Virus record (IMG/VR): IMGVR_UViG_3300009499_000148
Location: 42,060-106,059 of that record
Strand: one strand, 5' to 3'
DNA length: 64,000 nt
From: a virus
Below the pieces are notes generated by a model that saw only the letters and a program-made list of their open reading frames with translations, had not been told where the DNA came from and ran no database searches. A program made the translations under genes and the position numbers. Below are positions 22,100 through 31,796 of this stretch, piece after piece. Position 1 is the first letter of the stretch; each line of letters starts with the position of its first letter.

Positions 22100-22781
22100 T
22101 CACCAGAGCACTTCAAGCTCTCCTTTCATGACACGAGCTAAAGTTGCTTTCTTTCCTGTGATATGGTCATTCACAACATCATCTCGTTCTCTGTAAGTCC
22201 GACGCTTATCGCCGCGGGCTCCACAACCCACCATTTGTTTTCTATCAGAACTTAACTGTTGTGAAAATGATGTATCATGAATTTCTTTAAGACGTCTTTC
22301 AAGCTCATTCCATGCATTTGCTCTATTTTGTGCTTGTGAACGCTCGTTTTCAGATCTAACTTGTATTCCAGTCGGACGGTGTGTTAATCTACATGCAGTT
22401 GATGTTTTATTTCTGTTTTGGCCGCCCTTACCGCTTCCTCTCATAAAAGCTTCATCAACATCACTTGGATTAAGTTTAAATGTGCTTTTCGCACCGTCTT
22501 TAATAACAGCAACCGTGACAGTTGATGTTTGCACTCTATCTCTCTTTTCAGTCGGCGGAATTCTTTGCCATCTATGGCCGCCTGTTTCATTCTGAAATGA
22601 TGCATATGCACCATCGCCCTTCACTTTAAGAATGATTTGCCCATCATGCTCAAGTCTTTCAATGACGCTAAAGACGCCTCCGAGAACAAAACTTTTCATA
22701 CATCGCTGCCATATCCTGCGCTAATAATTTTGCATCTTGGCCGCCTTCTGCCGCCCTAATTTCAACCGCTATGATATCCAT
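22100..22781 (-). CDS. RF1-like peptide chain release factor with in-frame UAG and +1 frameshift signal
   Basis: Two overlapping frames that together read as a class I release factor of about 226 residues. Frame 0 starts at 22781 after GGGAGATAAC and encodes 37 residues (MDIIAVEIRAAEGGQDAK...), the start of RF domain 2 (EIRAGTGGDEA in E. coli RF1), then stops at UAG (22670-22668). After CUU, a +1 shift enters the second frame (SVIERLEHDGQ...KVKGDGAYASF), exactly continuing the RF1 alignment. Later motifs are HRWQRIPPTE (PxT, here PPT, the RF1-type stop-codon tripeptide), GSGKGGQ (peptidyl-tRNA hydrolysis) and RRTYRERDDVVNDH. Domain 1 (about 100-130 residues in host RFs) is missing. By family, it should recognise UAA/UAG. 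An ATG inside frame 2 at 22699 would give a truncated 199-residue form. Confidence 0.93.
22667..22681 (-). promoter_or_regulatory. Programmed +1 frameshift signal (prfB-like, with UAG)
   Basis: Read on the minus strand the site is GGAGG CGU CUU UAG C. In bacterial prfB the signal is AGGGGG UAU CUU UGA C: an SD-like stimulator, three nt, the slippery CUU codon, a stop and C. Spacing, slippery codon and following C are identical here; only the stop differs. The frame change it permits (0 to +1) is exactly the one needed to join the two halves of the release factor. Confidence 0.88.
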
Positions 22782-22795
22782 GTTATCTCCCTGTG

Positions 22796-22817: not shown

Positions 22818-23056
22818 CTCGTCGTATCACTCTAATGCATTGATTATCTGTAGATGATAATCACATAGTCATAAAAATCGATGACTTGGAGTGTGTCAGG
22901 TGAAACAGAAGCTAAAATACGGGTGGGTCTTCATCTGAAGATGAGAGCGCAATATTCTTTGCATTAACTTGCTTATCTTGTTCAAGTTCATCATACGCTT
23001 TCATCATTAATACAATTTAAGTATAAAGTACGGTAAATAACACTACTGAAAAAAAA
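22818..23056. other. Leader region between tmRNA and release factor
   Basis: About 240 nt without a confident gene. It holds a second 7-bp inverted repeat (GATTATC...GATAATC, 22842-22862), a short palindrome TCATCT-GA-AGATGA near 22930, and an 8-T run right after the tmRNA 3' end. A 31-codon minus-strand frame (22912-23007) lacks an SD and is not called. Confidence 0.5.
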
Positions 23057-23348
23057 TGGAGCTGCCGGCGTTTGCAAGCCGGGTCCAAAAGACTTAGAAG
23101 CGATGTTCATTCACAGGTTTGGTGGGCTAAGCCCACGTTCCGTTGAAACAGATATGTGTCATAGCATTAACCCAAGCTAGACGGGTCTTTGCTTCGTTTA
23201 TCGGGTGTGCAAAGAGACCCGATGAATCACGCCGCGAGGCGTAGTTCAGATTCGAAATCGTTGCCGATTATCAATGTTGTCTTCTTAAGGGAAAAGACGG
23301 CCCACCTGCACATCGTATCATCATCCTCTGTCGAAACTTATCAGCCCC
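23057..23348 (-). ncRNA. ssrA: tmRNA (ssrA)
   Basis: Both tRNA-like ends match tmRNA. The 5' end is GGGGCUGAUAAGUUUCGACAG (E. coli GGGGCUGAUUCUGGAUUCGAC). The 3' end is CCGGC-loop-GCCGG then CAGCUCC-A, so the 7-bp acceptor stem is the same as in E. coli, with one G-U pair. CCA is not encoded; eight T follow. The tag frame at 23265-23227 reads GNDFESELRLAA then UGA, preceded by UAAUC (UAGUC in E. coli), and ends LAA like the host degradation tag. Paired segments after the tag (GGGUCU.UUUGC with GCAAAGACCC; GUGGGC with GCCCAC) fit pseudoknot and hairpin positions. At 292 nt it is short but complete. Confidence 0.93.
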
Positions 23349-31076: not shown

Positions 31077-31148
31077 CGCGCCCAATGGGATTTGAACCCA
31101 TGACGTAGCAATTTAGAATTGCGTGTTCTACCGCTGAACTATAGGCGC
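31077..31148 (-). tRNA. tRNA with anticodon CUA (amber suppressor)
   Basis: A full canonical cloverleaf: acceptor GCGCCUA/UGGGCGC (7 bp, one G-U), D arm GUUC-AGCGGUA-GAAC, anticodon stem CGCAA/UUGCU (4 of 5 bp) with loop UU-CUA-AA, variable ACGUC, T arm AUGGG-UUCAAAU-CCCAU. Discriminator G; CCA not encoded. U33 and A37 are present. Anticodon CUA reads UAG. The charged amino acid cannot be told. It begins at the last codon of the Fe-S carrier gene: the C of G1 shares the first base of that gene's TAG. Confidence 0.9.
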
Positions 31149-31492
31149 TAAGCAAACGAATTTCCACAACCACACGTCGTGGATGCATATGGATTAATGA
31201 ACTTGAATCCAGTTCCTGATAGACCCATGATGTAATCAATCATCACTCCCTCTAGATGCATCGCAGATACTGGGTCGATATACACGGTGATTCCATCATG
31301 CGTTGATACAATGTCATCATCGTTTTTGTTTGAAAAATCAAGAACATACTCAAACCCAGCACAACCGCCTCCTCTGATTCCCACACGTAATCCATCACCG
31401 ACTACGTTCGGTTCTAGCATGAATTCTTTTATTGCAATGATAGCCTTCTGCGTGATTGTGATTATCTCATTGCTGTTTTCGCTTTCTTGCAC
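31148..31492 (-). CDS. A-type iron-sulfur carrier (IscA/ErpA-like)
   Basis: About 114 residues from a GTG at 31492 (GAGG 3 nt upstream); the frame continues upstream without a good start. GLRVGIRGGGCAGFEYVLDF carries the first conserved Cys, and TTCGCGNSF the C-x-C pair, the three ligands of the family. Length fits IscA/ErpA. The gene ends in TAG, whose first base is inside the amber tRNA. It may supply clusters to the XPD-like helicase or radical SAM enzymes encoded here (inference). Confidence 0.87.
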   Translation of the reverse strand: MQESENSNEIITITQKAIIAIKEFMLEPNVVGDGLRVGIRGGGCAGFEYVLDFSNKNDDDIVSTHDGITVYIDPVSAMHLEGVMIDYIMGLSGTGFKFINPYASTTCGCGNSFA

Positions 31493-31796
31493 GTGCCTCT
31501 TCCTTATACAATCGATTGAGTTGTTCTTGTCTGTCAAGCTGTATCGCAGTGAGACGGCGCTTGCTGATATCGTGTCTCTTTTCGGCTGCAACGACAACGT
31601 TAGACATACGCTTAAGCATTGCGTCTATTGCTCGTATAACGTTTATTAGGACAAGCAGAGCACTCTTCTCAAAGCCCCTTGACTGTGCAACATCCTTATA
31701 CATCGCCTTGAGTGTGCCATCAGCATCAAGCGACGACTGCATGCCATCTAACAGCTTACGAAGTGCGTTAGCACGTTCTTGAAATGATGCACTCAC
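31467..31796 (-). CDS. Coiled-coil hypothetical protein (109 aa)
   Basis: Unrecognised. Helical throughout, with a highly charged C-terminus (LNRLYKEEARARKRKQQ). It overlaps the Fe-S carrier start by 26 nt, implying coupling. Function unknown. Confidence 0.6.
   Translation of the reverse strand: MSASFQERANALRKLLDGMQSSLDADGTLKAMYKDVAQSRGFEKSALLVLINVIRAIDAMLKRMSNVVVAAEKRHDISKRRLTAIQLDRQEQLNRLYKEEARARKRKQQ

What the first reader, a model, noticed from the sequence alone, without database searches (positions are those of the whole stretch)
22100..22781. Release factor gene with a prfB-like +1 frameshift signal at UAG instead of UGA
The two frames join at GGAGG CGU CUU UAG C, with the same spacing and slippery codon as bacterial prfB. 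In prfB the stop is UGA, read by RF2 itself, giving autoregulation. Here the protein has an RF1-type PxT motif (PPT), expected to read UAA/UAG, and the stop is UAG. The logic of autoregulation is thus rebuilt for the other release factor. The protein also lacks RF domain 1. I know of no described RF1-type gene with this control.
Basis: partly seen in the sequence, partly recalled or inferred. Interest (0 to 1): 0.96.

Follow-up and report, generated by a model that had tools for sequence, protein, structure and literature searches.

The report
Phage release factor with UAG frameshift
A large virus of bacteria carries its own gene for a protein that ends protein synthesis; the gene is split by a UAG stop codon that the ribosome must slip past, and nearly all of its relatives in other viruses carry a comparable roadblock (most often at UGA), which suggests a widespread virus-borne sensor of how well the cell terminates translation.

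Summary
In detail: on the minus strand a 37-codon frame ends at GGAGG-CGU-CUU-UAG-C and the rest of a 226-aa class-I release factor (RF) follows in the +1 frame. The joined protein scores as RF1 over RF2 (208 vs 135 bits), lacks domain 1, and is predicted to fold like ribosome-bound RF1 domains 2-4 (pLDDT 92.9). It is not an isolated artefact: it belongs to a widespread family of domain-1-less RFs of large phages (no description found), also present in a few bacterial isolate genomes. Of 177 distinct members, 168 carry a premature-stop recoding site: +1 shift at UGA (72), UAG (21) or UAA (2), or one or two in-frame stops (72); 9 are continuous. UGA and UAG interchange repeatedly on the tree without a change in the PxT-type motif. 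The likeliest function is a termination-capacity sensor with negative feedback. Bacterial prfB never uses UAG, and no bacterial RF1 is known with such control; Mimivirus eRF1 (CUU-UAG-C) is the closest precedent. No expression data exist.

The parts
22787..22792 (-). Shine-Dalgarno sequence AGGGAG for the RF start codon
   Evidence: direct reading, 5 nt upstream of ATG 22781
22668..22781 (-). ORF1 (0 frame): 37 codons plus UAG; first strand and helix of RF domain 2 (VEIRAAEGGQDAKLL), with E119 of RF1 replaced by D16
22677..22681 (-). internal Shine-Dalgarno-like stimulator GGAGG (within the Arg-Arg codons CGG AGG), 3 nt before CUU
   Evidence: SD-like in 75 of 87 relatives
22671..22673 (-). 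slippery P-site codon CUU (CUU to UUU re-pairing)
   Evidence: CTT at 87 of 89 non-redundant +1-shift members, against 13% of other Leu codons in those genes
22668..22670 (-). shift-site stop UAG, followed by C
   Evidence: UAG followed by C in 17 of 19 UAG members
22100..22669 (-). ORF2 (+1 frame, from AGC after CUU): rest of domain 2 with PPT, GGQ domain, C-terminal part
23054..23348 (-). tmRNA gene upstream on the same strand (tag read as ...NDFESELRLAA)
   Evidence: Rfam RF00023 51.1 bits, gathering score 47; tag read from the sequence; no SmpB found in the record

Best explanation
This is a phage-encoded, domain-1-less class-I release factor whose synthesis needs a +1 ribosomal frameshift. 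The ribosome translates 37 codons and stalls with CUU in the P site and UAG(C) in the A site, while the upstream GGAGG pairs with 16S rRNA. If a release factor that reads UAG is plentiful, the short peptide is released and no RF is made. If termination is slow, the peptidyl-tRNA slips from CUU to UUU and the full 226-aa RF is made, which then restores termination. The gene thus acts as a termination sensor with negative feedback. Shown here: the sequence anatomy, family-wide conservation of the cassette, and a confidently predicted full-length fold. Inferred: that shifting happens, that RF level controls it, and that the product itself reads UAG (expected from Q72, T77 and T85, equivalent to RF1 Q181, T186 and T194).
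For: Cassette GGAGG-3nt-CUU-UAG-C with the prfB spacing. CTT at the shift codon in 87 of 89 non-redundant +1-shift members; SD-like in 75 of 87, stop at the same codon in 79 of 87, +4 base C in 61 of 87. 168 of 177 distinct family members carry some premature-stop recoding element and 9 are continuous; five of six huge-phage genomes checked show it too, as do bacterial isolate genomes that also hold full-length class-I RF genes. The joined product matches RF1 profiles across the junction, gives AlphaFold2 pLDDT 92.9 and best matches ribosome-bound RF1 (TM about 0.88). No alternative start is conserved: 59 of 87 have no ATG in the +1 frame before the shift. The genomic setting is a translation module: tmRNA upstream here; tRNA arrays, tmRNA or RNase P RNA near the RF in relatives. 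The prfB mechanism itself is established.
Against: No expression, ribosome-profiling or protein evidence. The specificity of the product is not tested. Most relatives with the same PPT motif carry UGA, which a strict RF1 does not read, so self-sensing is unproven. Near relatives of the window are withheld or absent, so the exact window junction has no second sequence. A CUA-anticodon tRNA in the same window could also decode this UAG.
Confidence: 0.7

Rival explanations
1. Host-RF sensor: the shift site reports the host's RF1 (here) or RF2 (UGA relatives). The phage RF is made only when host termination fails, and it need not itself read the stop at its own shift site.
For: UGA, UAG and UAA interchange on the tree while the specificity motif stays the same; site stop does not track the stop usage of nearby genes (TAG about 25% near UGA sites, about 23% near UAG sites; counts).
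Against: Without feedback from the product, supply would not be limited once it is made; the prfB precedent favours self-sensing; UAA is rare, as expected if efficiently read stops are avoided (inference).
Confidence: 0.2
2. Sequencing or assembly error, or a decaying gene.
For: Single metagenomic record; no near-identical second sequence available.
Against: Same cassette at the same codon in dozens of divergent contigs, in huge-phage genomes and in bacterial isolate genomes; both halves conserved.
Confidence: 0.02
3. Internal initiation: the functional protein is the 199-aa +1-frame ORF starting at ATG 22699, with no frameshift.
For: An ATG lies in the +1 frame about 9 codons upstream of the shift codon.
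Against: 33 of 87 members have no ATG/GTG/TTG and 59 no ATG in that frame upstream of the shift; the product would lose the conserved VEIRAAEGGxD strand and helix; the CTT codon and SD would be unexplained.
Confidence: 0.03
4. Suppressor-linked switch: the phage CUA tRNA decodes the UAG in frame 0 (running into UGA after two more codons) and thereby shuts RF synthesis off, marking a phase in which UAG is recoded.
For: A well-scoring tRNA with a CUA anticodon at 31077-31148.
Against: With one anticodon-loop pattern, CUA tRNAs were found in three other family phages, all with UGA sites, and in none of the other UAG phages checked; only one long UAG-separated same-frame pair in the window, against 3 for TGA and 2 for TAA.
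Confidence: 0.05

Closest known systems
Bacterial prfB (RF2) autoregulatory +1 programmed frameshift
   Same: SD-like sequence, 3-nt spacer, CUU, stop, C; short 0-frame ORF; product is a class-I RF
   Different: Stop is UAG (never in 8,164 prfB motifs, PMC12421855); RF1-type protein; shift lies in domain 2, domain 1 is absent; relatives also use in-frame stops
Mimivirus R726 / Megavirus mg280 class-I RF (eRF1 type), PMC3521657
   Same: Viral RF gene with an in-frame UGA-C readthrough and a +1 shift at CUU UAG C (Mimivirus) or CUU UAA C (Megavirus); some phage relatives carry two in-frame stops (L026, L036), and L025 combines an in-frame UGA with a CUU UAG C site
   Different: Unrelated protein family (eRF1), eukaryotic host, no bacterial SD stimulator; the window has only the shift
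Bacterial RF1 (prfA)
   Same: Sequence, PxT-type motif, Q181/T186/T194 equivalents, GGQ, predicted fold
   Different: No domain 1; E119 to D in 146 of 146 family rows; Pro in the middle of the tripeptide; shorter domain-2 hairpin; no programmed shift known in prfA (PMC12421855)
PrfH (RF-H)
   Same: Short RF without domain 1
   Different: Far below the PrfH cut-off (71.6 vs 166.65 bits); keeps the codon-recognition tripeptide

Membership tests
prfB-type shifty-stop +1 frameshift element | SD-like sequence 3 nt before a CUU codon directly followed by an in-frame stop | tested here: met
   GGAGG CGT CTT TAG
prfB-type shifty-stop +1 frameshift element | stop readable by RF2 (UGA or UAA) | tested here: not met
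   UAG in the window; 0 of 8,164 prfB motifs have UAG
prfB-type shifty-stop +1 frameshift element | frameshifting shown and inversely dependent on RF level | not testable with these tools
   needs reporter or ribosome profiling
Class-I release factor, RF1 subfamily | RF1 profile clearly over RF2; PxT-type motif; GGQ | tested here: met
   208 vs 135 bits; PPT 75-77 and GGQ 119-121
Class-I release factor, RF1 subfamily | reaches the RF1 equivalog cut-off and has domain 1 | tested here: not met
   208 bits vs cut-off 400; PCRF matched only at 102-194; phage family is one side of a branch against sampled bacterial RF1 and RF2
Class-I release factor, RF1 subfamily | reads UAA and UAG but not UGA | not testable with these tools
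   needs in vitro release assay
PrfH | TIGR03072 over its cut-off | tested here: not met
   71.6 vs 166.65 bits
Phage with recoded UAG (code 15) | many genes with in-frame UAG | tested here: not met
   one long UAG-separated pair in the window; UAG-as-sense does not raise coding coverage
Phage with recoded UAG (code 15) | CUA-anticodon suppressor tRNA | tested here: met
   31077-31148

The most novel reading that the evidence does not exclude
A phage-wide family of release factors that read all three stop codons (omnipotent, like eRF1) and autoregulate at whichever stop sits in their own gene, by slippage or by readthrough. This would be a bacterial-virus counterpart of the Mimivirus eRF1 circuit, evolved on an RF1-like protein without domain 1.
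Probability: 0.35. Interest if true: 0.93.

Novelty: new variant of a known kind. Interest (0 to 1): 0.86.

Why it matters
Programmed recoding of a bacterial-type RF1 gene, UAG in a prfB-like cassette, and in-frame stop readthrough in a bacterial-type RF gene were each reported as not found or unknown (PMC12421855, PMC5009743). Here all three appear, at sequence level, in one phage family at about 95% frequency. It suggests that phages sense and control translation termination during infection, it offers natural variants in which stop identity and RF sequence vary independently (a direct test of RF specificity), and it shows convergence with giant viruses. These genes are easily mis-annotated: a phage entry in BFVD holds only a 164-aa piece, named PrfB.

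Tried and rejected
Alternative code (UGA or UAG as sense) as the cause of the in-frame stops: in the single in-frame-UGA class 99 of 337 flanking ORFs end in UGA with 26 ATGA overlaps, so UGA is a stop there; in the double-stop classes UGA ends few ORFs (4 of 48; 3 of 14), so this is less firm. Mycoplasma-type RF1 hits with UGA at the conserved Trp were set aside as code 4. Link between the UAG site and CUA tRNAs: not found. Coupling of site stop to T186 or H193: none, but only 6 independent pairs on supported branches, so power is low. Stop usage of nearby genes: no visible difference between UGA and UAG sites. Downstream RNA structure: none at shift sites (mean z -0.02), mild excess at in-frame sites (mean z -1.05, 52 related sequences), only suggestive. 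Single-sequence AlphaFold was poor (pLDDT 48.8) and was replaced by the alignment run. Exact search for a second copy of the window junction: none. Scans for CGGAGGNGTCTTTAGC and ...TAAC in viral contigs: 6 of 38 and 0 of 24 matches were RF genes, so the motif alone is not diagnostic.

Full report
What is there. The gene lies on the minus strand of a 106-kb IMG/VR virus record. ATG 22781 follows AGGGAG; the 0 frame gives 37 residues and stops at UAG (22670-22668); the +1 frame runs on to 22100. The junction is TCT CGG AGG CGT CTT TAG CGT. Read as CTTT = Leu, it gives one continuous 226-aa protein (which prints 11 further residues from an upstream ATG). That protein matches the RF-1 domain and the C-terminal half of PCRF, RF1 over RF2 by 208 to 135 bits, and PDB RF1 chains at 4e-41. 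With an alignment of relatives AlphaFold2 gives pLDDT 92.9, and Foldseek ranks ribosome-bound RF1 first (TM about 0.88). Domain 1 is absent. The full motif GGAGGNNNCTTTAG occurs once in the window against 0.01 expected.

The family. A first scan gave 34 relatives; four further viral scans and one genome scan followed. A pattern-based classifier on the frames between the VEIRAAEGG and PxT-type motifs gave 177 distinct members: +1 shift with UGA 72, UAG 21, UAA 2; one in-frame UGA 59; UGA+UGA 10; UGA+UAG 2; in-frame UAG 1; unclear 1; continuous 9. Two of the 72 (L025, L384) lack a CTT before the UGA. Loci the classifier missed were read by eye and most also carried such sites. Of 89 non-redundant +1-shift members 87 have CTT directly before the stop, while CTT is 13% of other Leu codons in the same genes; SD-like sequences are in 75 of 87; the stop falls at codon 32 after the motif start in 79, at 42 in 5 and at 48 in 3. 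In-frame stops cluster in the same stretch, codons 31-46. In the commonest in-frame class UGA sits where bacterial RF1 has a conserved Trp, as expected if a Trp-tRNA reads it. Of six huge-phage genomes (from the PMC7162821 data set as I recall; records LR745206 etc.) five carry such elements, including the 735-kb one. Three bacterial isolate genomes (Minicystis rosea, Achromobacter anxifer, Novimethylophilus kurashikiensis) carry the CUU-UGA form besides two full-length class-I RF genes each. Sequencing error is therefore excluded for the family, and very unlikely here.

Specificity puzzle. In a tree of 148 family rows and 36 bacterial RFs the family is one side of a branch (quick search, no bootstrap). 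UGA/UAG changes about 16 times; starred branches alone force at least 6 changes of the UAG label. The tripeptide is PPT in 151 of 177, otherwise PPN, SPT, PPS and others, and four loci have a shortened loop. Neither T186 nor H193 tracks the site stop, although power is low. E119, which in T. thermophilus RF1 contacts U1 (from my knowledge of the structures; numbering from the offset), is Asp in 146 of 146 family rows and Glu in 33 of 33 sampled RF1. So the identity of the stop is not fixed by an RF1 motif. I favour a termination sensor with feedback; whether the product reads UGA too is open.

Setting. A tmRNA gene lies upstream on the same strand. Relatives have RF genes among dense tRNA arrays, with RNase P RNA (L002, L007, L008) or tmRNA (L004, L025, L026) within 5 kb. 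The window also has 24 tRNA genes by ARAGORN, one with anticodon CUA.

Comparison with the literature. Prince et al. 2025: prfB motifs 98.6% TGA, 1.4% TAA, no TAG; no evidence for programmed shifting in prfA. Atkins et al. 2016: in-frame readthrough in RF2 genes not found and the RF1/UAG counterpart unknown, with a giant virus as exception. Jeudy et al. 2012: Mimivirus R726 reads through UGA-C and shifts at CUU UAG C. Al-Shayeb et al. 2020 mention RF1 and RF2 in huge phages without a frameshift. Nine literature searches found no description of this phage family; only open-licence PMC papers were searched.

Limits. All evidence is sequence and structure prediction. The classifier is pattern-based, sampling follows similarity to chosen queries, contigs are mostly metagenomic, and near relatives of the window are withheld.

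Noticed in passing
window 31077-31148 (-): tRNA with a CUA (amber suppressor) anticodon, Rfam 63.9 bits, isolated from the tRNA array at 45-53 kb; acceptor GCGCCUA/UGGGCGC, G73. CUA tRNAs also occur in the phages of L022, L036 and L037 (two copies).
   Followed up: partly
window 23054-23348 (-): Phage tmRNA gene (tag read as ...NDFESELRLAA) just upstream of the RF gene, missed by ARAGORN; no SmpB found in the record.
   Followed up: partly
L002:2639-2996, L007:3087-3444, L008:3097-3451: Bacterial class A RNase P RNA (260-277 bits) encoded by large-phage contigs about 2 kb upstream of the RF gene, inside tRNA arrays.
   Followed up: no
L487, L502, L248, L257: Family members whose stop-codon recognition loop is four residues shorter and lacks a PxT, yet keep a recoding stop.
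   Followed up: no
L025:4968-5031, L063, L356, L357, L359, L376: A second class of +1 shift sites, CUU UAG C without an obvious SD, about 16 codons downstream; L025 also has an upstream in-frame UGA, the same order as Mimivirus R726.
   Followed up: partly
L118:4974-5528, L124:4998-5546, L126:4965-5495: Bacterial isolate chromosomes with a third, short RF carrying the CUU-UGA shift; the L124 neighbourhood holds a ruvB-like and a NADAR-like gene by eye, so it is not clearly a prophage.
   Followed up: partly
window 31148-31597 (-): Iron-sulphur cluster biosynthesis (PF01521) gene next to the CUA tRNA gene.
   Followed up: no
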